From positions 3,722,501-3,786,500 of the forward strand of contig OX359196.1 in assembly GCA_947172415.1 (NCBI GenBank): 64,000 nt of DNA. Direction: 5' to 3'. Positions 7,690-27,500 of this stretch are shown piece after piece; the stretch's first letter is position 1, and the number at the start of each line of letters is the position of its first letter. Below the pieces are notes generated by a model. The model was not told the DNA's origin and made no database searches. It saw nothing but the letters and a program-made list of their open reading frames with translations. This DNA comes from Chondrosia reniformis. Taxonomy: Eukaryota; Porifera; Demospongiae; Chondrillida; Chondrillidae. The translations under genes were made by a program, and so were the position numbers.

Positions 7690-8480
7690 TGTAGTGTATA
7701 GAACCATAGGACCATAGAACCACACTTCAGGCAATGTATACGTGCTATTCTCTACAGTATATAAGGTTATACTTGAGTAAATCCGTTTTTAATGTTGATC
7801 TGCCACAACAACTTATGATTCTTAGTCACACACCCGCTTGCCAACTAGCTACTTTCCTCATCTGAAGTTATATCATTCATGAATTTAAAGCAAGCAAGCA
7901 TCTTTACGACTGGAGCTAGCAATTTTTGTATAGCTAGGTCATTTCTAACTCGATATATTGTTTGTGTGTTCAACTTTCTCAAGGTACCTATTCTAATAAT
8001 CAATATACTGTTTGCGCTCCATCGAGAGGCCATTCTAAATGTAATAAGTGAATAAGTCTACCAGCATTTGAAGGCCTATAGAATGGAATTCTAAATAGCT
8101 TAAGTAAACTTACGCATTTTGTTGGCCGTAACGTCTCTGTCATTTGGCGTGAAGCAAGATGTTTCAAATTGAACGCCTTGTTTTGTGAAAACAGCCGTGC
8201 ATGCAAGACGTTCCAATGTTCCAAAATTTGGAGAACTCTGTCGGTGGCGGAGCGAATTAAAACGATCAAGTGTCCGATAATACATGGTGTTCAATAATTG
8301 ATTTTTTACTTTACTAAGGGAAGAACGCGCTCTGAGGATGCCAGCATCTTGCTGACTTGGCATGGATAGTGGACGATAATTGCATGGGACCCGATAGACT
8401 TCAAGACACTCGCTAATCTCTACCCACTAGACGTCGGACTTCGAATCTTGGTAGAGAACGATTATGGGTTATAATAGAGG
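7690..8480. other. No gene recognised
   Basis: Unique-looking sequence between the tandem repeat and element E1. Short open frames occur on the minus strand (7845-8363), but they overlap in different frames and show no family motif. I support nothing here. Confidence 0.5.
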
Positions 8481-8836
8481 AAGTGATCGATCATCGGACA
8501 CCATCAAACATCGGACACTATTAGACAAACAAAGGACTCACTAACGGCGATTGTGACACGATAGGTTGAAGCAACAAAGCGCACTTCCATAGACAAGAAA
8601 TCAGGCTTTAATTCCTCCGTGTATACGCATGGCAGCCAAGAAAGTGGGCTGGCCGAAAATATTGAAGATCGAACACTTTTTGGACGGCGGACTTGCTCTT
8701 TTCACGACGATTTGAAAAAAATGAGCAGTCGTATACGATTAATTGAGACTAAGTAGAGTCCTTTATAGCCTCCAGAAAAGCCTACAACTACAATAATTAT
8801 TATTGCTTTGGTCGCCATTTAATTATAATTAGCGGC
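8481..8836 (+). repeat. E1 left terminal inverted repeat
   Basis: About 355 bp, pairing with 12268-12638 over its length. Shared blocks include AAGTGATCGATCATCGGACA, GACACGATAGGTTGAAGC, ATACGCATGGCAGCCAAGAA, TCGTATACGATTAATT and the inner edge AATTAGCGGCCAT. Confidence 0.8.
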
Positions 8837-9011
8837 CATCTTATAGCTTTCATTTAGCGCATGCGCATTGCAAACTTCAGATCACAGCGATTACTAACTC
8901 ATTCATTCTTTACGTACAAGTAACAAATTTTATTACTAGAACTTGGTAAGTTTCCTTTTAGAAGAAGAGTATTTTCCCATGTCTAGTATAAGCATAGTCC
9001 ACACAAGCTGA

Positions 9012-10570
9012 TTGCCAGCCACATGTATGCATCTGCAAATGTTAAACTTCACTGTTATTCAAGTGTTTGTGTTTATGTATATCTACAGGGCTAGTATCAT
9101 TTATAAAGGCTCAGGCATATGGAGCAAGCACGAGCACTGTGCAGCCTCATGCTCCAAGCTTGCACAGTCGTGTGATTTCATCATGGGCCATTGTGAATGG
9201 ATATGCATTGCATTATCAACCACAGATCCACAATTGATGTCAACCCACCAAGTTCGTTACAAGGCATGGGACAATGACAGTATGAAAGGAGCAATGATAG
9301 GTGTTATAGAGAAGGGAATGTCAATTCGAGAGGCTGCAGAACGACACAATGTACCCAAGAGTACACTAGGTGACCACATTTCAGGTAGAGTACTGCCAGG
9401 CATCAAAAGTGGTCCACGGTCACATTTGATGGTAGAAGAAGAGTCAGAACTAGTAAAGTTTCTGTTGCACTCATCTTCCATAGGATATGGACGTACACGA
9501 AAAGATGTAATGGCAATTGTTAAAGGATTACTACTTGTAAAGGAACAAAAGAACATTGAAATTTCAAATGGTTGGTGGGAAAGATTTATCAAACAGCACC
9601 CTGAACTTTCACTTCGCACACCAGCAACAATCTCTATAGCTAGAGCTAAAGCAGCTGATCCCCAGTCCATTCATGCTTACTTTGATATTCTAGAAGAGAC
9701 TTTGGCACAGAATAAACTCACTGATAAATCATGTCAAATTTTTAACATGGACGAAACAGGCATGCCGATGGATATAAAGCCTTCAAGGATCATCCATTTA
9801 AAGGGAATTAGAAACCCATCTTATATATCAAGTGGGAATAAGTCCCATATAACTGTGGTTGGTTGTGTAAGTGCTGCAGGACAATGTTTACCACCTATGG
9901 TTATATTCAATCAAAAGAAACTAAAGCCAGAAATAGCTACTGGAGAAGTAAGTGGAAGACTCTATGGCCTTTCCCAAAATGGTTGGATGGACCAAATATT
10001 GTTCAAATTATGGTGTGAACGTCATTTCTTGCGATATGCTCCAGCTGCTAGACCACTGCTACTCTTATTGGATGGACATTCTTCTCACTACTGCCCAGAC
10101 ACCATAAAATATGCTGCTTCTGAAAAGGTTATTATTTTCACCTTGCCACCAAATACAACTCACCTAACTCAGCCTTTGGACAAGGGTGTGTTTGGGCCTT
10201 TGAAAACACATTGGAAAAATGTATGCCATCATTTTTTGGCAACCCATCCGGGAATGGTAGTCTCACGCTATTCATTCTCTGCACTATTTAGTGAGGCTTG
10301 GCTAAATGCTATGAGTGCAAGAATATTATATCTGGCTTCCGCACAACAGGTGTATACCTTCTGAGTATAGAGGCACTGCTTCCACCTGATAATAATAGTA
10401 AAAGCTTAGCAGAACAAACAGGAATTGCTTATATTCCATTTTATACACCATTGAATCGCACTGTTCATCCTCCTGTGCAGAGTCCAAAGTTTTCAGAAGA
10501 GCAACTAGAAAAATTCCCATGGGCATACAATGAAGAATCCACAGAGCTAATTGCAGATGAAGAATATTAG
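9012..10570 (+). pseudogene. Pogo/Tigger-like DDE transposase, one frameshift
   Basis: Cuts and pastes the element. The long frame from 9012 (450 codons) contains an HTH_psq-like DNA-binding region (residues 90-130: SIREAAERHNVPKSTLGDHI), then the DDE_1 core: FNMDETGM (D247), LLLLDGHSSHY (D354) and LTQPLDKGVFGP (D390). The real start is more likely Met76 (9237, STHQVRYKAWDN), since the first 75 residues look like read-through. At about 10319-10325 a one-base slip moves the frame. The downstream frame (to 10570) continues with the conserved NIISGFRTTGVY, and the C-terminal tail ends in a TAG stop. Apart from this slip the protein looks complete. It belongs to the Tc1/mariner-pogo superfamily, near the CENP-B/Tigger-like DDE_1 family. 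Confidence 0.85.
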
Positions 10571-10782
10571 AAGTGGGTTGAAGTGTACCACCCACAAAAG
10601 GAAGTGTCTCTGGATTCCAGTTATATATATCGTGCAATATCCTGCTGCGTGAATGCCAAAAAGTGTAGGGGCGGAGTGTATAAATTATATTGAGATATGC
10701 ACATAGCATAATATAACATTCAGGTTATATTCAACTTGTAATTTAAATATATATAGACATACATGATCTTCCTGGGCCAAAA

Positions 10783-11742
10783 GTGATTGAAATTGATGAA
10801 GAGGCTACCACTCCTGAAAGTTTTAAGAATATGTGGTGGTTGAAAGAAATGAACGTATCTAAATCAGATGAGCAGGCTCTCCTATCAGCAAAAGAATTGC
10901 CCGAAAACATTTATATTGCTTCACAGATGCTACTCAAAAAGCAATATCCCCATATAGAATCACTGCAGGATACATTTAAGGGCAAATTTTTGTCATTTCA
11001 ACCAGTTCGTGAAAAGAAAATGTCAGTGCAGATTTTGCATACAGGTATGTAGTCTTCAAGTATTAATTTATTCAAGCATATACTAATTTGTATTTATAAT
11101 GATTTGTTTATATATAAGCTTTTTATCTTGTCAGGTGACTAGGGTCTGTGTGGCAACACAAAGAGAGTCAAACTCCTCTGAGGTGCAGTTGTTCGATAGC
11201 CTTGTTGCTTCAAAGGATGTTGGCCGTCTTATTGTCCTACAAGCTGCCTGTTTATATAAAAAGTATTCTCAAACGGGAAATTTAAGGAGACAATACATGC
11301 CATCCCAACAGCAAGATGGTATAGTGGATTGTGGACTATTTGCCATTGCTTTTGCAGTTGAGTTTAGTCAGGGCAGAAGGCCAGGAAAAGCAACTTTTGA
11401 ACAAAAGAAAATGAGAAAACATCTACATCAATGTCTTATGCAAGGGCCTTGAGATCATTTCCCACCAAGAAGTTAGCAAAAATCATCATACGCCGAAAGA
11501 GTACAAGGGTTATTTCTTATAAACTCTACTGCTACTGCTTCATGCCAGATACTTATGAGACTGATATGATCCAATGTGGAAAATGTGTGAGATGGTTCCA
11601 CTTCACCAGCGTAGGAATAGAATATAAACATGCTATTCCCAAAGTCTGGAAATGTCCCAAATGCCAGGGTCTGCAAATTGGTTCAAATGCACTTGCAAAA
11701 CCAATAGAATTTACTTCTGCAACAGCCAGCAAGAAAGCATAG
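10783..11742 (+). pseudogene. ULP1-type cysteine protease plus PHD finger (E1 copy), decayed
   Basis: Related to the intact gene in E2 (13902-19908). Exon 10783-11047 encodes the N-terminal protease half (ELPENIYIASQMLL, KKMSVQILHT), ending at a GTATGT donor. The next exon begins near 11137 and reads VCVATQ, LFDSL (catalytic Asp) and QQQDGIVDCGLFAIAFA (Gln-x5-Cys active site). The catalytic His-Trp expected before VCVAT is missing: the bases GACTAGGGTC look like a small deletion of CAC-TGG. After CLMQG the frame shifts, and 11431-11742 encodes a PHD-like finger (YCYC, QCGKC, WFH, CPKC) in which one ligand Cys after the His is Ser. ULP1 proteases remove SUMO or ubiquitin-like tags; PHD fingers read histone H3 tails. 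This copy should be inactive. Confidence 0.8.
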
Positions 11743-12267
11743 ACTAAAAGTAAAAAGCAGCCTGCAACTTTTTTTCAAGTTTTTAAGTGTTGATTTTCTA
11801 ATTTTTGCACGTAAATTTAGTAATTTTGATTAATATTATAATTGATCATGAATATATAACACATGCATCCACTGGATCACATGCAACTTTGTGTGTGTAG
11901 TGTACGTATGTATACATAGCAATCATTGGCTGGGCTCACGCAGATCAGCAATATATAATCATAACTAATTATATAATGCACTGTATATATATACATAAAC
12001 TGAGTTTGTATATATATTTGTTTGTTTGTATGATAATATATCCACAATTAAGTAAGGAGCTTGAAATTGCATGACCTTGCTGAGTCTGGTGAATTTACCC
12101 TGTACGATTGCAAAAAATATACAGACCAAATTAGATCCATGCATATTTACATATGCATATACATGTGCTTGGGACTTGGGAAGGATTTATAGCTTGATTT
12201 ACATGCATATTGCAAAGAGGGAGTGGAAAGTACAGCGGCCATCTTTATTTCAGCTACCTGAAAAAGA

Positions 12268-12638
12268 AATGGCCGCTAATTAGTTAAATGGCGACCAAAT
12301 TATATATCAATTAGTTATAGGCGTTTCTGGAGGCTATATATAAAGGACTCTACCTAGTCTCACAACTATGAATTAATCGTATACGACTGCTCATTTGTTT
12401 CAAAACGTCGTGAAAAGAGCAAGTCCACCGTCCAAAAAATGTTCAATCATCAATACTTTCGGCCAGCCTACTTTCTTGGCTGCCATGCGTATACACGGAG
12501 GAATTAAAGCCTCATTTCTTGTCTATGGTAGTGTGCTTTGTTGCTTCAACCTATCGTGTCACAATCGCTGCTGGTGAGTCCTTTGTTTGTCTAATAAAGT
12601 GTCCGACGTTTGATGGTGTCCGATGATCGATCACTTAC
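12268..12638 (-). repeat. E1 right terminal inverted repeat
   Basis: Inverted partner of 8481-8836, about 370 bp, with small indels. The outer end is GATCGATCACTT at 12638. Confidence 0.8.
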
Positions 12639-12849
12639 TCTATATCAATCGTCCTCGGTGCGAGTCCTTGCAAGCCGCCATGATAGAGAGATACAGGACT
12701 TAGCTACTGCTACAACATAGAGGTGAAAGCAATATCTATGTCCTTTCGAATCATATTCATCTTTCTAAAGATAAAATGGATGGTGGCCGATAATTGATTT
12801 GTTACTACATCGTTCGAAAATAAGAACGCTTCATAACGCAATTTGTAAA

Positions 12850-13740
12850 TTTTTCGTTTCCTTAATGTGCTTTAACCGCACCCAATGCACCTCCGGAGGT
12901 GGTCTCGTGCCCAACCCCACTTCCACAATAATGGCTGCCGCCTGCGTAAGGTGGGTCTGGCACATTTCGCCGCATTTCTTGGTCTTGCTGACTCAGCATA
13001 CCAGGATTCTGGAGGGCCAATCAGATTGCTTGAAAATATTGTAAATAAAACTACTATAATAATAAAAATTGAAATGTGCGCTGGCGTCCGCGCATATCAC
13101 CATTTAACACACTGTCATAGATTGACGCTTCCTCTTGCCCACCACCAACAAAGGCAGCTCTCATTCCCCTTGCTGTAAAGTTGGTGACTTGATCCTGCAT
13201 CAGGGCGTTGAGTGGCGAGAGAACTATACAAATTGAATGGTGGCTTGGCGTGCCTTTAATTTCACGAAATCGGTCATACACTAAAGGAACACATGCAAAA
13301 CAAAGACTTTTGCCACTTCCTGTGGGTAACAAAATGAAGGTGTCTTGGCCACTGACAAAATGTAACACTGCTTCCAGTTGATTGGGCCTCGGCCTGTCAT
13401 AACCTAGCTGATGCACACTCTTGAAAATTACCTGCTTGATGATGGACGTTTCTATAGCGTGATACCAAGGCAAGGAACTGAAGCACAGCTGTCCATTTCG
13501 CGCGGACACCAGCGAATATTTCAATTTTTATTATTATAGTAGTATTATTTACAATATAATATTTTCGAGTACTCTGATTGGCCCTCCAGAATCCTGGTAT
13601 GCTGAGTCAGCAAGACCAAGAAATGCGGCGAAATGTGCCAGACCCACCTTAAGCAGGCGGCAGCCATTATTGCGGAAGTGGGGCTGGGCATGAGACTACT
13701 CCGGAGGTGAATTGGGTCGATGCGGGTAGTTCTAAAGCTT
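12850..13740. mobile_element. TIR element with captured RecQ-like helicase fragment
   Basis: Inverted repeats of about 210 bp (12855-13070 and 13520-13735) flank 450 bp of helicase coding sequence. Shared blocks on the two sides are CACCTCCGGAG, TGGGTCTGGCACATTTCGCC and GGCCCTCCAGAATCCTGGTA (or their complements). The right end touches element E2, so the exact boundary is uncertain. Confidence 0.7.
13054..13524 (-). pseudogene. RecQ-like DEAD-box helicase, N-terminal motor fragment
   Basis: The minus strand encodes about 156 residues. RPNQLEAVLHFVSGQDTFIL is the motif 0/Q-region of RecQ-type helicases; LPTGSGKSLCF is Walker A (motif I); CIVLSPLNALMQDQV is motif Ia. Walker B (DExH), the second RecA lobe and the RQC zinc region are absent, because the frame runs into the flanking inverted repeat. 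RecQ helicases unwind DNA 3'-5' in repair and recombination. This fragment lacks the residues needed for turnover. Residues 1-14 and the last ~25 derive from the inverted repeats. Confidence 0.75.
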
Positions 13741-13790
13741 AAAACGAAACGAAACGAAACGAAACGAAACGAACGAAACGAACGAAACGG
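13741..13790. repeat. (GAAAC)n / (GAAC)n simple repeat in E2 left end
   Basis: AAACG and AACG units in a row, mirrored at the E2 right end (21168-21191, CGTTTCGTTC). Part of the element ends. Confidence 0.85.
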
Positions 13791-13901
13791 ATACAACAGC
13801 CAAAACGGATACAACGGTCGAATATTTGTAGATACGTAGCACTATATACACATTGTACTTATGTATATATAAAACAATTGCTGGATAGAAGACATCTTAT
13901 A

Positions 13902-14332
13902 ATGACGTCACAAATTCATGTCATGAGAATGGAAGAAGAAGGACCCATTCAATCTCCTGATGTTGTGGATTTAATCCAAGATGTAAGTTGACCAATACTT
14001 TGTAGTAATTTTTTATGACCTATATTTGGTTAAATTATCGCAAACATTATTAATTATGTGTATGTAGACTGACAGTGAAGCATCACTAGAATTGTTTAAT
14101 GACCCTGATACTCCATCAAAATACATACCAAGAAAGCAGCCAAAATGTGAAATGTAAGATAAATTACATTGACTGTCAGTCTACATACACAAAATTAATA
14201 ATGTTTGTGATGATTGAACCAAATATAGGTCATAAAAATTACTACAAAGTATTGGTCAACTTACATCTTGGGTTAAATCCACAACATCAGGGGTCCTTCT
14301 TCTTCCTTTCTCATGTCATGAATTTGTGACGT
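13902..14332. repeat. Inverted duplication of exon 1-intron 1 of the E2 gene
   Basis: 13902-~14080 (exon 1, intron 1 and the start of exon 2) is repeated in reverse at ~14172-14332, e.g. TGACGTCACAAATTCATG on the left and CATGAATTTGTGACGTT on the right. Arms are ~165-175 bp with a few mismatches and indels; the loop of ~90 bp contains the rest of exon 2 and its donor. The transcript would carry a long hairpin across the first intron and start of intron 2. Confidence 0.85.
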
Positions 14333-17300
14333 TGTAGGAGTAAAATGAGCCCCCTGTAAAAAGGGTCCAGGGGGGCGTAATTTCCTAGGAATTTAGGCCC
14401 CCCCATTTTAGGAATTTGGTCCCTAGGGGGCTCATATTGCTAAAAAATAGGCCCCCTGCTTAGAGCAGATCAGGCCTCCCCGTGAATCGGGCCCCCTTTA
14501 TCTATCGATCTATGCGGCGCGCTGTTGAAAGGATCTTTAATACAAAGCTGGCATGCGCACAAGCTATAGGCCTTCGAATATATACTATTGAAAGTACACG
14601 CAATCAGTGATTATACATAGCTACGTATATATATACGCAGTGTTTAGTATTAGTAAAACAAGTATTTCGAGTTTAAAAACTCGTGGGGCTGCCGCCCCCC
14701 GAATTAACTCGAACTACTTGGCCGTATCGTTGGCATTTAATTATTATATATTCGTAATACTAACGATTGAGGACGCTTAAGTGTCCTGAACATTATAAAT
14801 AGCGACAGAAAAGCTTCGTTAACTAAAGCTTCCTGAACGCCGCCATTTGCAAAACGATGTATTGATGTATAAATTAAGTATTATAAAGTATTATAATGGT
14901 TGCGTATATATGAACCTGTATTAAATATATATCGACGTATAAATAAAGTGTTATAACAGTTGTGTATGAACCCGTATTATATATATATATATATATCTTT
15001 CCGTAACATGAAGCCGTACAACGTAATCGGCAAATGAAAACAATATAAGGGGCTGCCTGTGGCAGCCCCTAAAAACAACTTATTTTACACTTGAAAGTTG
15101 AAATGGCTACTAACAAGCTCGAGGACGAATCAGTAAAAGATCCAGAAGGCCAATTCTCATACTCTGATATATACTGTTACCTCAAAACAGGAAAATATCC
15201 AGAAGTTAGCAAGAGTATATGCAGAGCAGTGTAAATATATATAGTTAGAATGAACACAATCTGGTATCAGAGAGTACGGTAGTACTCTCTATGTAGGGAT
15301 GGTACGGGTAGTTTCGTTTTCCCCATACATTGGTATAGGAGCAAAATTCCGAATTAGGCTGAAAATCGCCAAAACGAGACTATGTAGAGTTAAATATAGA
15401 ACAGCCATGCTATAAATTGGCCTTGAAGGCAAGCGACCGTGTATCGTTGGCAAATGAACCAACTTTGAAATCTCCCATTTTCGTTTTCTTCTTCTTCATC
15501 TTCTTCTTCTTCATCTTCTTCGCCCGCTGTAACTAAAAAACGAAATAAGCCTTCGGACTACTTCTTAATCGAAATTACTCTAAATTTTCCGAGCTGTATT
15601 CTTTTGTAGAAGCGAGAGCGATAACGCTATTATTGAGTATGACAGTTTTCATGGCTCCAGAGTCAAGACCTCAATAAAATCGCCATTTTAATGACGTCAT
15701 AATCAGTCGAAGATTGCGAAACCAAAGTGGTTTAAAATACAACGAATTCCTAGCTTATGCTCCATAAAAAGTACAGAAACTAGAGAACAATAAAAATTTT
15801 CTACAAAAATAGTGAAGATGTAGGGATGGCACAAAAAGCATAGAAACAAGAAAGGGATGTTACACAGTGAAGCATTAGCTATGCATGAATCCTACAAGCA
15901 AGGGTGTTGTATGATTCATGCATATATAGCTAATGCTTCACTGTGTAACATCCCTTTCTTGTTTCTATGCTTTTTGTGCCATCCCTACATCTTCACTATT
16001 TTTGTAGAAAATTTTTATTGTTCTCTATAAACCTTTAAAATCTTAAATAGCAGCTATTCAGAAGTTGCAGCTGTTTCTTATATTCTTTCATGATCTATAT
16101 ATACTCAGTACAAGAAACAGCTGCAAATTCTGAATAGCTGCTATTTAAGATTTTAGGATTTATACCAGATTGTGTTAATAATTACAATGACTCATGATCA
16201 GTATGTATAATATATACATAGATATATGCGCAGCATGCAGTGCATCGATCCATATACCGGATTTGCAAAAAGGGACCCTTAAGATAATATTTAAGATGCT
16301 CCATGGCCAGAATTCTTGAGTAACATCCTTACTGATTTTACCAAACCAAACCAAACTCATGATCATGATCGAAGGGTCACTGGATATACGTATATACTTC
16401 TTATTGAACAGAAATTCGAAATTATTTCTATAATATGATGTTTAATTAGATTATTCATGCAATTACACAAAAGTTGATAATATAATGCTGTTATACAGTA
16501 CAATAATATAAGTAGAGTTTCCAACAATTGAATAGAAATAGGCATACTAAAGATAATGGTGTTAACCACAGCTGCATCTTCATTAGTCTGGCATTCTTTT
16601 GCTTGAAATTATCTTTATGATAATAGAACTGCAAAAAGGAAGAAAAAAGAGCATTAAGAAGAAGAGCTGCATACTTCTTTGTGGAACATGATTGTAATTT
16701 GTATTATAAAGGCAACAAACCCACCACAGCAAAAGATTTCAGGAAGAGACAAGTAGTGCAGAGTGCAAGCACTAGAAGAGACCTCATAAAATGTACACAT
16801 GACCAAGGTCACTTAGGTAGAGATCAAACCTATGGAGCATTGAAAGATCGGTATTATTGGCCAAAAATGTACACAGATGTCTTAGATTATGTAAGTACAT
16901 TATTAAAAACTTTTAAAATAGTAATTGTTTTAGGCCCTATATGTGACTGCACTATATTAAGATGCATGAGCCTTCAAATGTTACAGCAAAGTCAGGTGTT
17001 GCATCTAGGCTAACCACTTTGGAAGCCAAAGCAGTGTATACACACTGCTATGGCCACGCTTTGAACCTGGCTGCTCAGGATGCAATCAGGAGGCTGAAGA
17101 TAATGGGAGATGCTCTTGATACCGTCTACGAGATAACCAAATTAATCAAGAAATCTCCCAAGCGTGATGCCCTTTTCCAGAAAGTGAAAGAAGATGTCAC
17201 TCCTGGATCCCCAGGAATACGTATTCTGTGTCCGACACGATGGACTGTCAGGGCTGAGGCATTGTCATCAATTTCAGAGAATTATCAAGCACTGCAGATG

Positions 17301-19908
17301 ACTTGGGATGCTGCCAAAGAGGCTACGAGAGATTCGGAGATGAGAGCACGCATTGGAGGAGTTGCCGCACAGATGGAAAGGTTCGACTTTTTCTTCGGAG
17401 TTGAACTTGGAAGAAAGATTCTTAGCATGGCTGACAATCTATCTCGCTCATTGCAGGAAAAATCTATTTCGGCATGTGAGGGACAAAAACTTGTCTCTTT
17501 AACGCTTGCATCATACCAGTCCATTCGCTCTGAAGACTGCTTTGATCTCTTCTGGGAGTATGTGGAGGGCAGACGGTCCAAAGCTGATGTATCCTCACCC
17601 ACTCTCCCTAGACAAAGGAAGGCTCCACGGAGATTTGAAGAAGGCGAAGGTACCTCTGAATACCCCAGCACAGCAAAGGATTACTATCGGAGGATATATT
17701 TTGAAGGTATTGATCTGATCACATCAGCAATTAGAAATAGATTTGATCAAAAGGGTTTCCAGATTCTCCAAAAATTGGAGACAGTCCTGACCACCATCAA
17801 ACAGGCCCAACAGTCAGAAGCACTAAAAGCTGTAGTAGCATTCTACGGAACTGACTTTCACAGTCAAGACCGTCTGCTGACACAGCTGACCTGCTTGCAT
17901 TCTGCAGCTGGCAGTGGAACCCCTTTGACTGATTTACAGTCAATAGTTGCCTACCTGAAATCCTTGTCCACTGCACAAAGGAACTACTTCTCCGAAGTGA
18001 TCAAGCTGGTTAAGCTTATTCTGGTGATGCCTGCAACCAATGCGCACAGTGAGAGAAGCTTTAGTGCACTGCGCAGGCTCAAAACATGGCTGCGTACAAC
18101 CACCAGTCAAGCGAGGCTCAACTGGTGCATGATTCTGCATGTCCATCAGGACAGAACAGATGCCTTGCCCATGCTTAGTTTAGCTAACGACTTTGTATCC
18201 CGCAGTGACAACAGAATGCGCATGTTTGGACAATTTAAGTGATATTTTCATAGTTTGTACTATTGTTTTGGACTGATTGCATATAGCTATAATATAGCTA
18301 TATGCAATCAGTCCAAAACAATTTCGGTATATAATATATACCGAAATTTCTGGTTTACTGGAGCAACATAGTTGATGATAATGGCGGCCAGCATGAGTGG
18401 GCATGAGTTAGTATTTAAAGAAATAGAAAATATAGGTTGTGGCTAAAAAACTGGGGGGGCTTAAGCCCCCAAAGCCCCATAGGTTGCTACACCCTTGTTA
18501 CTTAATTATAAATGATTACCCTTAATTATAATAGTCAACATAGCAATTTTTATCATGCATGTTGACTGTATTAACGTATAATGATGCTTAAATATACCAT
18601 ATGACATGAAATGATTCTTTGGTACATGCAGTATACCAGAATGCAAGCAATCAGGTTTGCCTTGCAAAATAGTGGAAGAAGACAAGAGGACTTCAAATTT
18701 TCAGTACAAAGGTACACTCAAATACGTATATATTATGTTTTAATTTATAGACTTTTAATCAATGTTCGGGTAGTTACAACTACCCACGTAAAGATAATTT
18801 CCATGCCTACTGTAAGCCATATGTTCTAGGAAGCTCAAGGCAAATGTAATAAAATAGATTCTGTGTCTTTCCAATATTAGATACACCTACAAAACTACCA
18901 GCAAAAAGACCTCATGATCAAAGACCAATGTCACAAGATGTGTCCCTCTCCCACTGCCCGGAGAAGTCCCCCTCAAAGAAATCATCCAACAAGATATGTT
19001 GCACCTGTAAAGCAAGATGTGCAAGTAGTAGAAAATGTTTATGCAAAAAAGAGAAACGTTGGTGCAGCCAGTTTTGCCATCCAGGGAAAGATTGTGTTAA
19101 TAAACCTTCACAATGCATTCCTGTAATGGTGGATTTAAGTCATTCAAGTAATGCTGCTGTCATTGCTTCTAAGGATGTTTGGGTAACGATTGAAGAAACA
19201 CCCATCTTTATAGAAGATCGCGACACTCTTGCAAATGGTGCATGGCTAAACGATGGCTTGATTAATGCAGCACAGACATTAATGAAGATTCAACATCCAC
19301 ATATGGCTGGACTACAGAACACTCTCTTACAACAGGTTAGCTGTTTTGATGTCCTTGGGGAGAAGCAATTTGTCCAAGTACTTCATGTCAACAAGAACCA
19401 TTGGATTACAATATCAAATGTTGGATGTAAAGCAGCATCCACCCGAGTCTTTGACAGCCTTAACCTTTCACTGTCACCAACTGAGATCAAAGTTATAGCC
19501 GAGACCCTGTACACTTTTAACAAATTAATGGTGATAGAATATGCCGACATGCCATTCCAATGTGGATCAGACGATTGTGGCCTCTTTGCTATAGCGTATG
19601 CCTGTTCCATTTTTAATGGAAAGGATCCATCCCAAGAGAACTTCACACAGAAGTTGATGCGATCCCACCTAGTGAAAGGCCTGGAGGAAAAATCATTAAC
19701 ACCATTTCCTTCAAGAAAGAGAGCACACAAAGCATGCAAATGGAGAAGACAGGAGGTAGCCCTATACTGCACATGCAGATTGCCAAGAGACAGCAGACAA
19801 CTTGTGCAGTGCAGTACCTGCAAAGAGTGGTACCATCCTGAATGTTTGAAAATCCCCTCAAAATACATTAATTCACAAGAGGCATGGTTTTGCAATTCAT
19901 GTATATAA
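13902..19908 (+). CDS. Cys-rich / ULP1 protease / PHD-finger protein (E2 cargo gene, 4 exons)
   Basis: Spliced model: exons 13902-13982, 14068-14153, 18632-18711 and 18881-19908. All introns are GT..AG with matching phases, and the sum is 1275 nt (424 aa plus stop), with no internal stop. Residues 1-98 are acidic to linker-like (DSEASLELFNDPDTPSKY). Residues 120-157 form a dense Cys cluster (CCTCKARC, KCLCKK, WCSQFCHPGKDC), resembling CXC-type or other zinc-binding domains. Residues ~190-345 are a ULP1/SENP-type C48 protease with WLNDGLIN, catalytic NKNHW (H256), FDSL (D274) and QCGSDDCGLFA (Q309, C315). Residues 379-423 are a PHD finger: YCTC, QCSTC, WYHPEC, CNSC. It probably removes SUMO-like tags in the nucleus at chromatin, but its role for the element is unknown. 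Alternative starts at codons 8 and 10 are possible. Confidence 0.8.
14334..14520. repeat. C/G-run-rich inverted block, left copy
   Basis: AGGAGTAAAATGAGCCCCCT, AAAAAGGGTCCAGGGGGGC and CTAGGAATTTAGGCCCCCCC. It pairs inverted with 20918-21079. Rich in C6-C7 and G6-G7 runs; it may be part of the E2 ends or a separate MITE. Confidence 0.65.
14658..15078. repeat. Repeat family RF1, copy 1 (uninterrupted)
   Basis: Begins ACAAGTATTTCGAGTTTAAA, continues CTCGTGGGGCTGCCGCCCC and ends with the hairpin AAGGGGCTGCCTGTGGCAGC. About 80-90% like 25710-26020 plus 28509-28557, which is the same family split by the giant palindrome. Terminal GGGGCTGCC blocks are inverted at the two ends, as in a MITE. It includes a (TA)n tract at 14977-14997. 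Confidence 0.8.
15782..16026. repeat. Near-perfect palindrome, ~110-bp arms
   Basis: 15782-~15892 is repeated inverted at ~15915-16026, e.g. GATGTAGGGATGGCACAAAA on the left and TTTTGTGCCATCCCTACATC on the right. Loop of about 22 bp. Confidence 0.9.
16036..16157. repeat. Hairpin with ~43-bp arms
   Basis: AAATCTTAAATAGCAGCTAT near 16036 pairs with ATAGCTGCTATTTAAGATTT ending near 16155; GCAGCTGTTTCTT pairs with AAGAAACAGCTGC. Confidence 0.85.
16681..16905 (+). pseudogene. Integrase H2C2 zinc-binding fragment (Ginger or Gypsy type)
   Basis: Encodes CTHDQGHLGRDQTYGALKDR, then YYWPKMYTDVLDYV, the His-His half of an integrase HHCC domain. The CxxC half that should follow is cut off at a splice-donor-like GTAAGT near 16900. 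No DDE core follows. Ginger DNA transposons and Gypsy retroelements share this domain, and I cannot separate them. It lies just upstream of the hAT fragment on the same strand. Confidence 0.6.
16962..18242 (+). pseudogene. hAT transposase, 5'-truncated (ZMYM/DUF4371-like)
   Basis: An intact frame of 426 codons. It carries CYGHALNLAAQDAI (hAT catalytic-region motif after the insertion domain), RILCPTRWTVRAEAL (the CxxRW motif of hAT transposases) and a C-terminal dimerisation region, VMPATNAHSERSFSALRRLK. The N-terminal zinc finger and first catalytic Asp region are missing. No stop for >1.2 kb and a clean C-terminus suggest a recent loss of the 5' part, or an upstream exon I cannot find; an AG acceptor (TTTTAG) at about 16930-16935 would allow one. 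hAT enzymes move elements by cut-and-paste. Confidence 0.75.
18262..18345. repeat. Two adjacent short palindromes
   Basis: ATTGTTTTGGACTGATTGCA pairs inverted with TGCAATCAGTCCAAAACAAT (arms ~29 bp). TTCGGTATAT pairs with ATATACCGAA right after it. They sit just past the hAT stop codon. Confidence 0.85.
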
Positions 19909-20161
19909 CAAAGACACCATTTAGGAACTCATTTTTTGAACTTACTGTTAATGTATACATTTAGTATTACTTTAATGACCATTTTACGCTGATGTTAGTT
20001 TAAATTTAATATTGTTGAAAATTTAATTCAAATATAAACTGATGGCTTACACTGTAAGAAGGGATCCTCTTTACATACTGTAAAGATGAGCTTAAAGATG
20101 GACAGGTACAGCTTTAAGTTCAATTTAAAGATGCTCAAGATGTCTTTAAGCTGACATTATT

Positions 20162-20507
20162 AGGCCAGGCAAATTCGATTCCCAGTTTACCGTCCCTGCC
20201 CGCATGCTTGTTTGGGCACACTGTCGAACTTTCATTTTTCATTAGAGCACATAAATAGGCACCAATGACTTTTGGTTACAACTTGCTTCTGTGCTCCTTT
20301 ATTACATTTTCAACTTTAATACTGTGTGTTCTGCTTTAATATGTACAACTTACAATTGTTTCTTTATTATTGGCAATTCAGTGAGTCTTGTATGTCTGAT
20401 GACTGATTGCATTTGTAATAATGAATAATGAAAAATGACCTCCTCCCTCATGCTATTTTCAAAACTGCTGGACGATAAACTGTGAATCGAATTTGCCTGG
20501 CCTTACC
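20162..20507. mobile_element. PIF/Harbinger-type MITE (345 bp)
   Basis: TIR of about 35 bp starting GGCCAGGCAAATTCGATTC, inverted at 20475-20505. Flanked on both sides by TTA, the usual 3-bp target duplication of PIF/Harbinger elements. No coding sequence. Confidence 0.7.
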
Positions 20508-20917
20508 ATATTCTCTCTAATACATACTGGGTATTCTTACTACAATATAATGATATTCAATATTCAAACGTGTTGCTCTCTATACATACATAAAAAGTGG
20601 CTCAAACGTCAACATTAAAAGAAGATCCGTTTTCTTTCATACAGTGACACTTTCTCTTAAACATTTTCGTTTTAATCGATACAATTAAGCAAGAGTAAAT
20701 GGTATAACAATTGAGATTACACTATTAAGTCGCTCTTTCTAAACTTACTAGTGTCACACCATCGCACGCCGCCGCCGCCTAATATAACCTGTACAACATG
20801 CTTTACAGTTGACAAAAGAACGTTAAAATTAAAAAGTGAAATAAAATTTGACAACTGATTTAGTTAAACTATGCATTGAGCGTTACTCACCTTTCTTGGT
20901 AGGCAAATGAGGAAGGG

Positions 20918-21079
20918 GGGGCCTAAATCCCTAATCGTTCAAAAAGGGACCCAGATCACTAACAGCTGCTTAAAACAATGGCCGCCATTTTTCCAGTGAA
21001 CCATGTCCAGGGGGGCCTAAATTCCTAGAAAATTAGGTCCCCCCCGGACCCTTTTTACGGGGGGGCTCATTTTACTCCT
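20918..21079. repeat. C/G-run-rich inverted block, right copy
   Basis: Inverted partner of 14334-14520: GGGGGGCCTAAATTCCTAG, GGACCCTTTTTACGGGGGGG and CTCATTTTACTCCT. Contiguous with the E2 right end. Confidence 0.65.
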
Positions 21080-21314
21080 AAACGTCATTATAAGATGTCT
21101 TCTATCCAGCAATTGTTACGTAAGTACAATGTATAGCGCTACGTATCTACGTATATTCGGCCGTTGTATCCGTTTCGTTCGTTTCGTTTCGCTTTTTAGA
21201 ATTACCCGGGTCGATGCGCATTAAGGCGGATCGAGGAATCGAATGCGCATTGAAATTTTATCGTGTGAAACCGATTAATGCGCAGTATCGTTGCAAGTGT
21301 GAAAAGGCCTTATA

Positions 21315-21555: not shown

Positions 21556-24500
21556 GTGGGTTTGAGTTGACTGAAGCGGGACAGTATTTAACCGAAAGTG
21601 CCTATAGGTTTTAGTCCCTTGGGTAATGGTCATTGCGGTAAATTTGTTAGCCTTTCAAACGAACATGCTTGCACTTTAAGGTAACTTTGTAAGGTAATAA
21701 CTAATCGCATGTATAGTCTACTACAGGGACGTCGGAAGTATTTTACTTAATGGTTAAAAGCATCCGCCCATTTATTTGGCAAAACAGGAGCCGGCATTGC
21801 ATCTTCGCACTTAAAGTTAAATGGTCAAGATATACTGTCCTTTTGGTTATAAGAATGAAAGGCTTAGTCTTACATTTTACTGTTTTCTTAAAGAATAGAA
21901 CATGGTATATTGATAGGTGCTCCTTGTCGAAAGATTAGATAGATAGAATTTATTTTACAACAGGAATGCTGTATCTACAGTACACAGTAGATTTTCATAC
22001 AGGTCCTGGAAAAAAAACAGAAACAAAAAGTTTTATACTAAACAGTTAACAACAACAATATCAAAAGTAATGAAAATAGTGATCCAGCTAATTCTACAAG
22101 TCAGAATCTCTTCTATGTCTAAGCACGGCATCCCTGAATAGCTTCCTCTCCTGTAACTCTCGGATAGTCGTGGGTAGATTGTTAAACATCTTGGCGCCTT
22201 GAAACTCAAAACTTGCGTGATAAAATTTAGTCCTAGGATGTGGTAGATGTAGTTTGGTTGAACCTCGAGTCTTTGCATAGTGTAGACTTGAGTTAGATGT
22301 GAACTTAGAGGAGAGGTAAGATGGTGCTTGATTTGTAACACAACGATGGACCTGACAGACCAATGCATTTCGTCTTCTCACTTCCAGGGTAGTCCACCCC
22401 AGTGTCCGTCTAAGCAATTCTCTACTTGTAAGTGGTGGCTTCCGCAAAATCTACCTGAGGGCATAGTTCTGCACCCTCTCTATGCGCTTGCCCAGTGTTG
22501 CCCCACAGGAGTTCCATACCACCGAGCAGTAGTCCAGGTGTGGAAGCACAAACGCTTGGTATAACAGCTTCCTGATGTGGCAGGGCAGGTATGACCCAGC
22601 TCTTCTGATTGCTGCCAGCTTTCCCATGCACTGATTGTATACCTTCTGAATATGGGCCTTCCACGTCAGATCCCTGTCGATCTCAACTCCAAGGTACCTC
22701 ACACAACTTTGTTGTTGTAGCTCCACTTCCCCAATCTTCACCCGTACAGAGTCAGCCTCCTCACGCCTCCCTCTTCTGCTAAGGACCATCAGCTGTGTCT
22801 TTGCCACATTCAGTCTTAGTCCATTGGAGTGAATCCAAAGGGCTACTCTGCCTAGGTCCTTCTCCACTCTCTCTCCAAGCACCGATGGGTCAGAGTCCGC
22901 TGAGTAGATGGCTGTGTCGTCTGCAAAAAGGTTAATGGATGTCTCCTGTACAACATCCGGTAAGTCATTCACAAACAACAGAAACAGTAGGGGTCCGAGG
23001 ATAGATCCTTGGGGGACACCCATGGTGACCCTTGCCCACTCTGATGGAACACTGTTCAATACCACCCTCTGTTTTCTCCCTGACAAGTAGTCAGTGAACC
23101 ATGCCAATTCTGCACCTTGTATGCCATAGGCATTCAGTTTCCTCAGCAGCAGGTCGTGATTGATGGTGTCAAAAGCTTTACTGAGATCAATCATTACTGT
23201 GGCTACAATCTGGCCAAGATCCAGGGCTTTCTTCCAGTCATCAGTTGCTCTTAACAACACGTCTTGGGTTGATCTGTTTGGTCTGAACCCAGCTTGCTCT
23301 TCGTTCAGAATCCTATTCTTCTCCACGTACTCAAAGAGTTGGTCATAGACAATGCACTCAAATACTTTAGCTAACACAGGTATCACTGAGACAGGACGGT
23401 AGTTATTCACTTCATTTCTGTCCCCAGATTTGGGCACAGGCGTCACATTTGCCTCCTTCCACTCAGTTGGAAAATGACCTTGTGATAAGCTAGCATTGAG
23501 TATAGAAGTAAGACTGTTGGATATAGCAGGGGCAACCATTCGAAGGAGTTTGGCAGATAGACTGTCAGGTCCAGTGGCCTTTCGCTCGTCCAGTTGAGAC
23601 AGTTTCTTTAGGACATCTTCCTCCGAGACAGGGATAAATGAGAATTTGCTGAGAATGGGTTGTACATGGCATTCCAAGTTGGTTGATGATGATTGCTTTG
23701 AAGAGCTGAAGTGCTGCACAAACCCATTGGCAATGTCTGAGGGTTGAGCCAAGACTCTTCCTCCCCAGTTGATTGCATCAATAGCACCATTCACCTTCCT
23801 TCCCAGAGCAGTGTTTAGCTGCCTCCAGGTGAACCTGGGCTGATGGGAGATGTCCTTACATACTCTCCTAAAGTACTCAGACTTTGCGACCCGCAATCTT
23901 CGGTTCACCTCATTTCTGATAGCTTTGAATTTGTGCCAATCTTGCTCTGCACGGGTCTTTCGATGTTTCTTCCTATAGTAATTCCTAGACCGCATCAAAC
24001 TCCGCAGCCCTGAATCGATCCAATCATCATCTTGATTCTTAGTCTTCATTCTAACCTTCATGAGTGGCGCATGCTTATCAACAACACTGAGGAAGAGGGT
24101 CATCCAGTAGCTCAATTTGTCATTGACGTCGTCAAAACTGTCCATTACCTGCCATGGAGCACTTCCTAGGTCTGATAGTAACGCTTTCTCTTCACACTTC
24201 TTGAAGCTTCTGACTGTACACACCTTTGCTGGTAACTTCACCTCTTCTTTGTGTTCACCAAAAATCATGAGATGGTCACTTCCTACACACTCGGTTGCTC
24301 CTGAAGAAGAAAACACATCAGGAGAAGAGGTAAAAAGAACATCCAGGAGAGTTTGTGAGTGGTCGGTGATGCGGGTTGGCTCTGAGATCAGCTGCTTAAG
24401 ATTATTCTCACTCGTAATGAGGAGAAGTCTGTCAGTCTGAGAGGATGGAGTCAGTAAGTTGATGTTGAGGTCACCCATCAAGACCACATCCCTGCATTCG

Positions 24501-27500
24501 GCTGCCACCCTCTCCATCATTACTTCAAAGTTGGAAAATACACTCAAGTCAGCATTTGGCGGTCTGTACATGTTGCCCAACAGGATAGTCATTTTGTTCA
24601 ATCGCACTTCAACCCAAACACACTCAATCTCGTCATCCTCTAGATCCAGTCGCCTCTTACTTTTGCATCTCTCTGGCACATACAATAGTACTCCCCCACC
24701 TCTGCTTTTGCGGTCACGTCTAAACAACTTATAGGAGGGTATGGCAACTTCACCATCAGGGACATCACTCTCCAGCCATGTCTCACTGATTCCGAAGATC
24801 GCAGGCCTCTTAGCATTAGTGAGAATGGATCGCAATTCATCCATCTTGTTTCGCAGGCATTGGGCATTGAGGTGGCAGAAGACAACCCTGTTGGTGCAGC
24901 TGTCTAGTGGCGATGAAGTTTTGGATATATCAAGCGGGCTGGGACGGAAGGTGTCCGTGGTCAGGCTTTCTTCAGCGAACGACAGCTCCTCAGATAAACA
25001 CGATGCACTGCTGTTGGCAAACGGTAGTTCATCAGAAACACACGCTGGGCATAGCCAATCGTTAATGCAGTCAAGGCTGAGCTGATCGTACTGGTCGTTT
25101 GACACACGACAGCAGCGGGCATGGGTCCACAAGTTACAGACATCGCAGCACAAGCCGCGCTGGTTCTTCTTGACGGGATTCTTGCAGATGGTGCAAGGAA
25201 ACTTCACCGGCCCTGGGTTTAGCTCTATATCCCCCGACAGCAACAGAAGCCAGTAGTAGGAAGGGATAGTAGGCGATCGTGACCTACGCGATTGTATGTG
25301 AAAATCGGGGCGAAGGTGCGAATTTCTCATCCACAAGCATTGGACAAATCCAGAGCAACTGCCCTCGTTGAAAGCCAGCGGTGCGAACAGCAGCTCCCTG
25401 TTAGACGATTGGGAGGCTTGGGGGAGTTCGTAGTAGCCAAAAATCCGGAAAATCAGCAAACAGATCCAAAGGTAAGCGCGCAAGAATCTCCATGCCGCCA
25501 TCTTTTTTGCTAAAATAATATTTCGGATTGAACCAAACACCTGGATTTGTATACAGTGCTTATTCGGATTGAACCAAACACCTGGATTTGTATACAGTGC
25601 TTATTTTTTCTGGAGCTAAGACTAATAGACCACTTTCCTTATACTATCTCCTTCTGTATTAAGCTGTATAGGACTTGAGTAAAGTGAAGAATTACCAAAC
25701 ATATGGTTACAAGTATTTCGAGTTTAAAAACTCGTGGGGCTGCCGCCCCCGAATTAACTCGAACTACTTGGCAGCATCGTTGGGATTTAATATATATATT
25801 CGTAATACTAACGATTGAGGACGCTTAAGTGTCCTGAACTTTATAAATAACGATGGAAAAGTTTCGTTAACTAAAGCTTCATGAACGCCGCCTTTTGCAA
25901 AAACGATGTATCGACGTATAAATTAAGTGTTACAATAGTTGCGTATGAACTCGTATTATATATATATCGACGTATAAAATAAGTGTTATAACAGTTGCGT
26001 ATGAACCCGAATTATATATACAGTGCAAGTTACAATATACTAAGGTAATCTAATCTAATATAATGTGAATAATTAAATAATTCATATGGCTCCAAGAAAG
26101 GACCTAGAAACAAAATGGGCATATCATCATAAAGTTTAGGGTATAAAACTCATTTTAAATTAAGGGATTTTTGATTTAGGCCTCCGTTTCTTAGAAAACG
26201 GAGGGCAAAGTTTGCATATAAAAGCCATAGGACTATAGAAACCCTATGGGAAATTTATATGCAAACCATGTGTTATATTGATAAAAATTTTCAGTTTGTC
26301 CAATAACTGTGAAATCAACATATTTCATGGTACATGTGTATAAGAAACGTCTGGCGAAGTTTTGCTTAATTAAATGAGCAAAATAATCAAGATATAATGA
26401 AGAATTCAAAGTTGCGATTGCGCAAGCTGGTGATGTATTGTGATGTTCTTCTAATGCGTCACCAACACCTTCGTATGTCGCTCCGTACACACATTTTGTG
26501 AATCTTGTGACGTTGCGAAAACGTCACCGCCTTGTTGCTAAAGAAGATCATCCTTTCGAGAACGGCTATGACAAGTCGACGCTCTCCTACGAGAAGGAGC
26601 TACCGAATAAGCGAGTTGTAGCGAAGGTGAGATAAAGCGTATTTGTATACGTTCCCGTTAATTTTGAGGCAGAATTGTCCCTATACTGATGCAAAAGAAA
26701 TTCGTTTAGTCGACCGTATTAAAACTTTGGTAATTAAAGCTCTGTCTTCTCTTCTCATGTTTTTATTCATTTTTTACTTGCAATTGTCCATGTGTAGGAA
26801 TAAGGAGTGTTATATATTATGCTTGTTTAAATACAATCAAGTACTACACAGTGCAAGTTACAAATTTATACACGGATGCAAGTGACTCCCAAGATAATCA
26901 CACTGAGGTATATAATATGATACGGATGCAAATGACTCCCAAAATAATCACAATCAGGTATATTAAACGCTACAAGACTTTAGCCACACTGAAATTCTCA
27001 ACTGCTGCATACAGAGTAGTAGTCTCTACAGATCATATAAGGTTAAATACATGGCCTTCCAATTACCTTTTCACACCTAAGTATAGACTGAAGATGATGC
27101 ATCTGGATGCCATTATCAGCAAAAATTCCAGTCTCATGCAGGGGATCTCAGCCAATAATCACCGCAGATTTGACTTGCCTTGAGTGTGAGCTAGGAGTAC
27201 CATTGGTTGCTTGCATGCATTCACATAAACAACAGGGTTAGAGACGATTTGGTAACTTGCACACAGGGACATAAAGGCTGGGGCCTTTAATTTATTTCAT
27301 GAACAATGTCCCTTGTGTGCAAGTTACCAAATCGTGTGAAAAGGTAATTGGAAGGCCATGTATTTAACCTTATATGATCTGTAGAGACTACTACTCTGTA
27401 TGCAGCAGTTGAGAATTTCAGTGTGGCTAAAGTCTTGTAGCGTTTAATATACCTGATTGTGATTATTTTGGGAGTCATTTCCATCTGTATTATATTATCT

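What the first reader, a model, noticed from the sequence alone, without database searches (positions are those of the whole stretch)
8481..21215. Two DNA transposons with unrelated ends each carry a ULP1-protease plus PHD-finger gene
E1 (TIR AAGTGATCGATC..) pairs a pogo/Tigger-type transposase with a ULP1-PHD gene. E2 (TIR rich in CGAAACGAAACG) carries a homologous gene in better condition. The same domain order and the shared Q-x5-C box (QQQDGIVDCGLF / QCGSDDCGLF) indicate common descent. Either one accessory gene has moved between transposon lineages, or both belong to one little-known group of large cut-and-paste elements. A deSUMOylase joined to a histone-reading finger suggests a module that lets an element remove SUMO-based silencing at marked chromatin. 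ULP1-type proteases are known in several eukaryotic transposon groups; this pairing with a pogo-type enzyme is one I cannot place.
Basis: partly seen in the sequence, partly recalled or inferred. Interest (0 to 1): 0.75.

Follow-up and report, generated by a model that had tools for sequence, protein, structure and literature searches.

The report
SUMO-protease–PHD module shared by unrelated transposons
In a sponge genome, the same two-part protein module (a SUMO-cutting-type protease plus a histone-reading-type finger) is attached to the jumping enzymes of several unrelated DNA transposon groups, including, twice over, the pogo group, where our literature searches found no earlier record of it; what the module does is still inferred.

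Summary
The genes are real, but one attribution is wrong. E1 (8477-12640) is a decayed pogo-type element (TA-flanked TIRs, DDE_1 transposase) whose ULP1-PHD is its own. E2 is two nested elements: the CGAAACG TIR belongs to a foldback element, and its right arm holds a Ginger1-like element (14333-21081; TGTAG start, ACGT duplication) that carries the ULP1-PHD gene and lost its integrase core. Ulp1+PHD in Ginger1 and Mutator is published; the pogo pairing was not found in my searches.

Genome-wide (size fits Chondrosia reniformis), ULP1-PHD loci lie downstream of pogo transposases (11 of 82) or integrase cores (16 of 82), against 0.26 and 0.30 by chance. One pogo family encodes DDE_1, ULP1 and PHD in a single 692-aa ORF; in another, exon phases read transposase-linker-ULP1-PHD as one protein. 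The ULP1-PHD tree shows two pogo acquisitions (AU p 3.7e-5) and copies on a KRBA2-like integrase and a MULE-like transposase with Macro domain. The module has thus been exchanged between transposase types. Fold: SENP/Ulp1; PHD resembles H3K4me3 readers. The anti-silencing function is inference.

The parts
8477..12640 (+). E1: decayed pogo-type element; TIR begins GAGGAAGTGATCGATC / GAGTAAGTGATCGATC, flanked by TA at 8475-8476 and 12641-12642
   Evidence: inverted repeats I1, I9, I19, I22; ends and TA checked; TA beside the one end seen in each of the C2 and C14 copies
9012..10570 (+). pogo transposase of E1 (ORF 9012-10364, frame shifts to ORF 10295-10570)
   Evidence: DDE_1 2.7e-21, HTH_psq 7.9e-7; 112 matches in the genome
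10747..11742 (+). ULP1 (two exon-like pieces 10747-11049, ~11130-11450) and PHD (~11530-11670) of E1; decayed: frame shift, catalytic His-Trp absent in this copy but present in the C2 and C14 copies
13724..21207 (.). outer foldback element with the CGAAACG-rich TIR; 10-bp direct repeat GGGTCGATGC at 13714-13723 and 21208-21217
14333..21081 (+). Ginger1-like element nested in the foldback's right arm: starts TGTAGGAG, 4-bp duplication ACGT at 14329-14332 and 21082-21085, TIR about 70 bp
   Evidence: inverted repeats I10, I14, I21; joined-flank comparison; relatives on C2 and C5 stop matching within a few bases of this end
16627..16987 (+). integrase H2C2 zinc-binding domain of the Ginger1-like element; sequence shared with copy 2 ends at 16987
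   Evidence: PF17921 4.4e-14; copy 2 (L067) continues into an rve core
16988..18686 (+). stretch with a hAT dimerisation ORF (16947-18242) in place of the integrase core
   Evidence: PF05699 5.7e-7; gap in the alignment with copy 2
18853..19908 (+). CXC-like Cys-rich stretch + ULP1 + PHD ORF of the Ginger1-like element, 351 aa
   Evidence: PHD 2.4e-9; SENP/Ulp1 by profile and fold; CXC by eye

Best explanation
A ULP1-PHD cassette forms the C-terminal part of transposases of unrelated types and has been exchanged between them. E1 belongs to a pogo lineage that acquired it and kept it across at least three families whose transposases have diverged. The window's second copy belongs to a nested Ginger1-like element, not to the CGAAACG TIR. 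A second pogo lineage acquired it independently; its module lies among integrase-linked ones in the tree. Shown: linkage, one single-ORF fusion, shared catalytic residues and linker, fold, trees. Inferred: as part of the transposase protein, the PHD docks it on H3K4me3-bearing open chromatin and the SENP-type protease strips SUMO (or another ubiquitin-like tag) from the transposase or nearby repressors, so that transposition escapes SUMO-dependent control. I put about 0.85 on the structural and evolutionary part and about 0.35-0.4 on this function.
For: Linkage: of 82 merged ULP1-PHD loci, 11 have a pogo transposase and 16 an integrase core within 4 kb upstream on the same strand; 1000 shifted controls gave means 0.26 and 0.30, maximum 3 each; downstream controls 1 and 1; opposite strand upstream 2 and 0, the 2 being loci that also have a same-strand pogo match. 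Fusion: L045 one ORF of 692 aa with DDE_1 2.5e-14, Peptidase_C48 9.9e-5 (22.7 bits, cut-off 20.7), PHD 1.5e-4 (22.2 bits, under its cut-off of 24), between 25-bp TIRs (92%) with TA flanks, N-terminal exon BrkDBD + HTH_Tnp_Tc5; P0162, 78% identical in the module and with a piece of the same transposase, lies on a 223,910-base contig of no named organism. In element C8:4209615 the transposase exon leaves in phase 1 and four linker exons are multiples of three; ULP1 exon borders fit phase 1 by eye. TIR-bounded element on C1 with both genes, TIR 388 bp at 98.5%; the C3 copy also has both TIRs and both genes' remains. Trees: pogo ULP1-PHD rows one clade 97/96, Ginger1-like rows not one clade p 0.0003; the two pogo groups not one clade p 3.7e-5. 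Transposase tree: a 96/95 branch separates 24 of 24 non-carriers from 9 of 9 carriers plus distant L045. PHDs of ULP1-bearing pogo are nearer to integrase- and MULE-linked PHDs (mean 37%) than to PHDs of pogo without ULP1 (29%), 14 chosen segments. Fold: SENP1/SENP2/Ulp1; PHD nearest Spp1, PHF2, SHORT LIFE, DIDO1, EBS.
Against: 55 of 82 ULP1-PHD loci had neither enzyme within 4 kb at the thresholds used. Copies within families drift nearly neutrally: 13 module comparisons, dN/dS 0.37-1.97, 8 of them 0.75-1.27, on small counts; so recent selection is not shown. Between families codon position 3 differs most in 21 of 21 pairs, a weak sign of past constraint. One transposase-bearing relative with the 388-bp TIR (C14) showed no ULP1 hit. 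Among the 120 listed of 451 pogo relatives in other data none had a ULP1 or PHD Pfam label, although exon-wise predictions could hide it. The 9 carriers are not one clade in the transposase tree because L045 roots among them; holding them together is not rejected (p-AU 0.071), and L045 covers only 41% of its columns. The groups of the test were set after earlier trees: P0021 and P0029 were put with pogo by tree place alone. Neither copy of the C7/C8 pair is whole: the C8 copy has a stop in its first ULP1 exon and the C7 transposase frame ends early. No expression, biochemical or transposition data.
Confidence: 0.72

Rival explanations
1. Only the Ginger1-like case is real biology; pogo copies merely have a neighbouring or nested Ginger1 fragment.
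For: E2 in this very window is a nested insertion, so nesting happens; E1's own ULP1-PHD is broken.
Against: No ULP1 locus had both enzymes upstream; the pogo-linked modules form their own clade (97/96; 100/99) whose three groups match groups of the transposase tree; one uninterrupted ORF fuses DDE_1 to ULP1-PHD; TIR-bounded pogo elements hold both.
Confidence: 0.06
2. Each transposon captured a host ULP1/SENP gene and a PHD independently, so the order arose by convergence.
For: Gene capture by transposons is common (recalled); PHD without ULP1 occurs in other pogo elements (L029 one ORF; L009, L011, L014).
Against: The linker between ULP1 and PHD is conserved (F-Q-MR-HL ... FP ... YC-C), and PHDs of ULP1-bearing elements resemble one another more than the PHD-only type. 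That fits movement as a unit.
Confidence: 0.12
3. The module mainly chooses or opens target sites: PHD reads H3K4me3 and the protease clears SUMO or ubiquitin from local chromatin; relief of silencing of the element itself is secondary.
For: PHD nearest to PHDs that by recall read H3K4me3, by sequence and fold; position at the transposase C terminus.
Against: No insertion-site statistics near promoters were made; the L045 PHD lacks the conserved Trp.
Confidence: 0.3
4. The protease stabilises the transposase by removing ubiquitin-like tags from it, with no chromatin role.
For: Ginger1 transposases carry either OTU or Ulp1 but not both, one family having neither (PMC2836005, passages read), as if the two kinds of de-conjugating protease were interchangeable.
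Against: Does not explain the coupled PHD.
Confidence: 0.25

Closest known systems
Ginger1 DNA transposons with C-terminal Ulp1 (and PHD), e.g. Ginger1-9_HM of Hydra (Bao et al. 2010, PMC2836005; passages read)
   Same: H2C2 plus rve integrase, C-terminal Ulp1 and PHD, TGTNR start, 4-bp duplication, short TIR
   Different: duplication here is ACGT, not CCGG or CCGT/ACGG; a CXC-like stretch precedes ULP1; window copy lacks the integrase core
Mutator elements with Ulp1 in hydra, lancelet and plants, and Ulp1/PHD of Mutator TPases in a figure legend (PMC2836005; passages)
   Same: same protease type on a MULE-type transposase
   Different: here a MULE-like transposase ORF also holds a Macro domain, with ULP1-PHD in a later ORF (L075/L038)
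pogo/Tigger elements (IS630-Tc1-mariner)
   Same: HTH_psq or BrkDBD/HTH_Tnp_Tc5, DDE_1, TA flanks
   Different: C-terminal ULP1-PHD; no such pairing found in searches of the held library
Crypton elements with Ulp1 in oomycetes (PMC3212892; passages read)
   Same: Ulp1-related peptidase shared by two transposon groups; the authors say domain shuffling could explain it
   Different: tyrosine recombinase; PHD not mentioned in the passages read

Membership tests
pogo/Tigger (E1) | DDE_1 transposase with HTH DNA-binding domain | tested here: met
   DDE_1 2.7e-21, HTH_psq 7.9e-7
pogo/Tigger (E1) | TIRs with TA target duplication | tested here: met
   TA at 8475-8476 and 12641-12642 outside matching TIRs; TA beside the one end seen in each of the C2 and C14 copies
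pogo/Tigger (E1) | catalytic acid triad tested against solved or aligned transposases | not tested
   motifs seen by eye only
Ginger1 (14333-21081) | Gypsy-type integrase with H2C2 and rve core | tested here: met
   H2C2 4.4e-14 in the window and 1.4e-13 in copy 2; rve 2.1e-4 in copy 2, 21.9 bits, below its gathering score of 32.6; rve absent from the window copy
Ginger1 (14333-21081) | 5' TGTNR terminus | tested here: met
   TGTAG at 14333; the 3' end reads CTCCTAA in the window and CTCCTACA in the C5 copy
Ginger1 (14333-21081) | 4-bp duplication CCGG or CCGT/ACGG | tested here: not met
   4 bp, but ACGT; C2 and C5 copies show ACGT and ATGT beside one end only, hence 'Ginger1-like'
Ginger1 (14333-21081) | GPY/F and YPYY motifs | not tested
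   only an SH3_Tf2-1 hit (2.8e-4, under its cut-off) in another integrase-linked locus, L060
Ulp1/SENP protease (C48) | His, Asp, Gln, Cys catalytic residues and fold | tested here: met
   for the 18853-19905 protein: H173-W174, D191, Q226, C232 invariant or at least 90% in 36 sequences; SENP1 2.5e-9 by profile; Foldseek SENP2 2.9e-8; Pfam C48 not found in it; activity untested
H3K4me3-reading PHD | aromatic cage and peptide binding | tested here: inconclusive
   nearest solved PHDs are Spp1, PHF2 and others; cage positions (Y, M/L, W) judged from recall; binding not testable here

The most novel reading that the evidence does not exclude
A transposon-borne ULP1-PHD cassette is traded between otherwise unrelated DNA transposon superfamilies (pogo twice, Ginger1-like, KRBA2-like integrase, MULE-like) as an exchangeable counter-silencing and chromatin-docking part, comparable to exchangeable anti-defence genes of phages.
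Probability: 0.35. Interest if true: 0.8.

Novelty: new variant of a known kind. Interest (0 to 1): 0.6.

Why it matters
If an enzyme module is shared across transposase superfamilies, transposons have a common pool of host-interaction parts, and SUMO becomes a direct candidate for a control that many DNA transposons must overcome in animals. The pogo group is of special interest because it gave rise to CENP-B (named in PMC3212892, passages) and POGZ (recalled). A single-ORF transposase-ULP1-PHD protein, and the two-acquisition tree, make the idea directly testable.

Tried and rejected
Rejected or weak: (a) CGAAACG TIR as the end of the gene-bearing element. (b) The three other CGAAACG places as empty foldbacks: they match only the left part of the window's foldback (to about 14172), so the window copy looks like a foldback derivative of a longer element, and no empty foldback was found. 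(c) Within-family dN/dS as proof of selection: near neutral. (d) The MULE assignment of L075 rests on a Pfam match below threshold (0.012, 16.4 bits against 27.6, nearly the whole domain) plus a SWIM-like motif by eye. (e) KRBA2-like is a recalled name; the result is rve 1.5e-5 in L039, 25.6 bits, under its cut-off of 32.6, and the other four rows are grouped with it by sequence. (f) The left end of Ginger copy 2 was not found in 11.5 kb. (g) pogo relatives in other data: none of the 120 listed of 451 had a ULP1 or PHD label. (h) Papers: among the listings of searches I judged PMC2836005 and PMC3212892 the relevant ones and read passages of these two only; others listed (for instance a review and a survey of plant transposons with Ulp1) were seen as listings. 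(i) Host SENP genes were not put in the trees. Rows dropped: 4 matches under 145 aa (PHD-only) from the ULP1 alignment, leaving 33; one near-identical row from the tree of 32; two short rows from the transposase tree; 9 of 33 rows and 14 of 33, to thin near-copies and, long branches. 'Non-carrier' means no ULP1 match in the fetched flanks nor within 4 kb; 13 of the 24 have a PHD-like match, some of them weak (E up to 0.056).


Full report
What is there. The window lies on contig C8 (3722501-3786500) of a 117,379,552-base genome in 15 contigs. Size and contig number fit Chondrosia reniformis (117.37 Mb, 14 chromosomes plus mitochondrion; PMC12181767, seen as search listing and start of abstract). 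That naming is an inference.

E1. The inverted ends extend from 8477 to 12640, with TA just outside on both sides. Inside are a pogo-type transposase (DDE_1, HTH_psq) and, downstream on the same strand, ULP1 and PHD pieces with exon-like borders. The copy is decayed: the transposase and ULP1 frames are shifted, and the His-Trp of the protease is missing, whereas the C2 and C14 copies keep it. Its TIR finds two other copies. Both carry ULP1-PHD remains. Transposase remains in C2 only as an N-terminal piece, and none was detected in C14.

E2 is nested. The CGAAACG ends (13724 and 21207) are flanked by the 10-bp direct repeat GGGTCGATGC. The left arm is matched by a right arm that is interrupted at 14333-21081. 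With the flanks joined the arms align over 281 columns at 86%, with one extra ACGT at the junction, the duplicated target. The inserted element starts TGTAGGAG, has an inverted end of about 70 bp, an integrase H2C2 domain (4.4e-14) and the ULP1-PHD ORF. Copy 2 (L067) continues from H2C2 into an rve core. In the window that part is replaced by DNA with a hAT ORF. It is Ginger1-like. Ulp1 plus PHD in Ginger1 and Mutator transposases is in Bao et al. 2010 (PMC2836005; passages). The CGAAACG end has three other places in the genome, 27, 154 and 196 kb from the nearest ULP1-PHD place. They match only its left part.

How general. One search gave 112 pogo-transposase matches, one search gave 96 ULP1-PHD matches and one search gave 99 integrase-core matches; the tool calls such counts lower bounds. 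They merge to 85, 82 and 97 loci. Of the 82 ULP1-PHD loci, 11 have pogo and 16 have integrase within 4 kb upstream on the same strand, none has both, and 55 have neither. Shifted controls: means 0.26 and 0.30, maxima 3 and 3. Downstream controls: 1 and 1. Opposite strand upstream: 2 and 0.

One protein or two. L045 is one ORF of 692 aa with DDE_1, Peptidase_C48 (22.7 bits, cut-off 20.7) and PHD (22.2 bits, cut-off 24). It lies between 25-bp TIRs (92%) with TA flanks, and an upstream exon has BrkDBD and HTH_Tnp_Tc5. In the C8:4209615 element the transposase exon leaves in phase 1 and the four linker exons of 105, 111, 105 and 123 bases each keep phase 1; the ULP1 exon borders fit the same phase (read by eye). 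That copy has a stop in its first ULP1 exon, and in its near-twin on C7 the transposase frame ends early. Some other pogo elements have a PHD without ULP1, in one ORF in L029 and in TIR-bounded elements L009, L011 and L014.

Families by TIR. The 388-bp TIR of the C1 element has 10 matches. C1 and C3 have both ends and remains of both genes, C8 has the right end and both genes, C14 has transposase but no ULP1 hit, and the C5 place and the short C3:6217523-6217732 place have no hit or 9 beside them.

Trees. In the ULP1-PHD tree of 32 rows, the 10 pogo rows form one clade (97/96), Ginger1-like rows do not (AU p 0.0003), and the L045 module lies among integrase-linked rows. The first test of pogo plus L045 as one clade gave p 0.021, with a warning of long branches. 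A second set of 34 rows with 15 outside relatives, built to break them, gave p 3.7e-5. Outside relatives P0021 and P0029 fall within the pogo-type clade (no transposase is known beside them) and P0162 falls with L045. In the transposase tree of 34 rows a 96/95 branch separates 24 non-carriers from 9 carriers and the distant L045. The 9 are not one clade there, and holding them together is not rejected (p 0.071). Direction of exchange is not resolved.

Other carriers. L039 has rve (1.5e-5, under its cut-off) and Peptidase_C48 in one 280-aa ORF that seems to have lost its middle part; four further loci share its ULP1-PHD type. L075/L038 has a MULE-like domain (0.012) and a Macro domain (3e-31) in one 767-aa ORF, with ULP1-PHD in a later ORF. 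A Daphnia protein, P0198, has MULE plus a Peptidase_C48 match under its cut-off.

Fold and residues. The predicted model of the 18883-19905 protein (mean pLDDT 82.5; ten-residue blocks of ULP1 and PHD 88-99) matches SENP2 and SENP1 first (E 2.9e-8 and 3.1e-8, TM by target about 0.6), and its PHD part matches BPTF, PHF23, TAF3 and PHF2 at E 0.007-0.008. By sequence the PHD is nearest Spp1, PHF2, SHORT LIFE, DIDO1 and EBS. That such PHDs read H3K4me3 is largely recalled; the listings name H3K4me3-bound BPTF and TAF3.

Mechanism. Shown: a SENP-type protease with conserved catalytic residues, fused or linked to transposases, with a PHD. Inferred: docking on H3K4me3 chromatin and removal of SUMO or a related tag from transposase or repressors. 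That OTU and Ulp1 replace each other in Ginger1 (PMC2836005) fits a generic de-conjugating role. Against: no selection signal within families, no functional data.

Verdict. A real and wider pattern than reported, with E2 mis-assigned. The pogo pairing, its two acquisitions and the MULE-Macro version were not met in the searches made (none of them asked for Macro). Repbase reports and most subscription papers were not available. New variant of a known kind.

Noticed in passing
window 12870-13720: Inverted-repeat element (arms 12899-13043/13555-13699, 94%) enclosing a DEAD-helicase fragment, RecQ-like by eye (PF00270 5.5e-12). The inverted ends recur at many places; of the 83 matches listed only C10:1502500-1502950, besides the window itself, covers a good part of the helicase stretch.
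   Followed up: partly
window 22451-25600 (-): 1049-aa ORF that looks like a non-LTR retrotransposon and contains a GDIELNPGP stretch (2A-like, recalled) followed by a Cys-rich finger and reverse-transcriptase motifs (by eye).
   Followed up: no
L075/L038 (C2:3559600-3566333): MULE-like transposase ORF that also contains a Macro domain (3e-31), with ULP1-PHD in a later ORF.
   Followed up: partly
L053, L052, L055 (C5:4676951-4683572): Tandem triplet with a HIRAN-like domain (2.5e-5, just under cut-off) and a ULP1-like domain without PHD, beside a piggyBac-type fragment (PF13843 9.6e-8); P0028 shows the same pair elsewhere, HIRAN weak.
   Followed up: partly
L009, L011, L014, L029: pogo elements with a C-terminal PHD-like finger of another type and no ULP1 found; L029 in one 663-aa ORF.
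   Followed up: partly
L061/L004 and L005/L062: Near-identical pogo-ULP1-PHD element pair whose linker is built of several similar phase-1 exons, as if duplicated.
   Followed up: no
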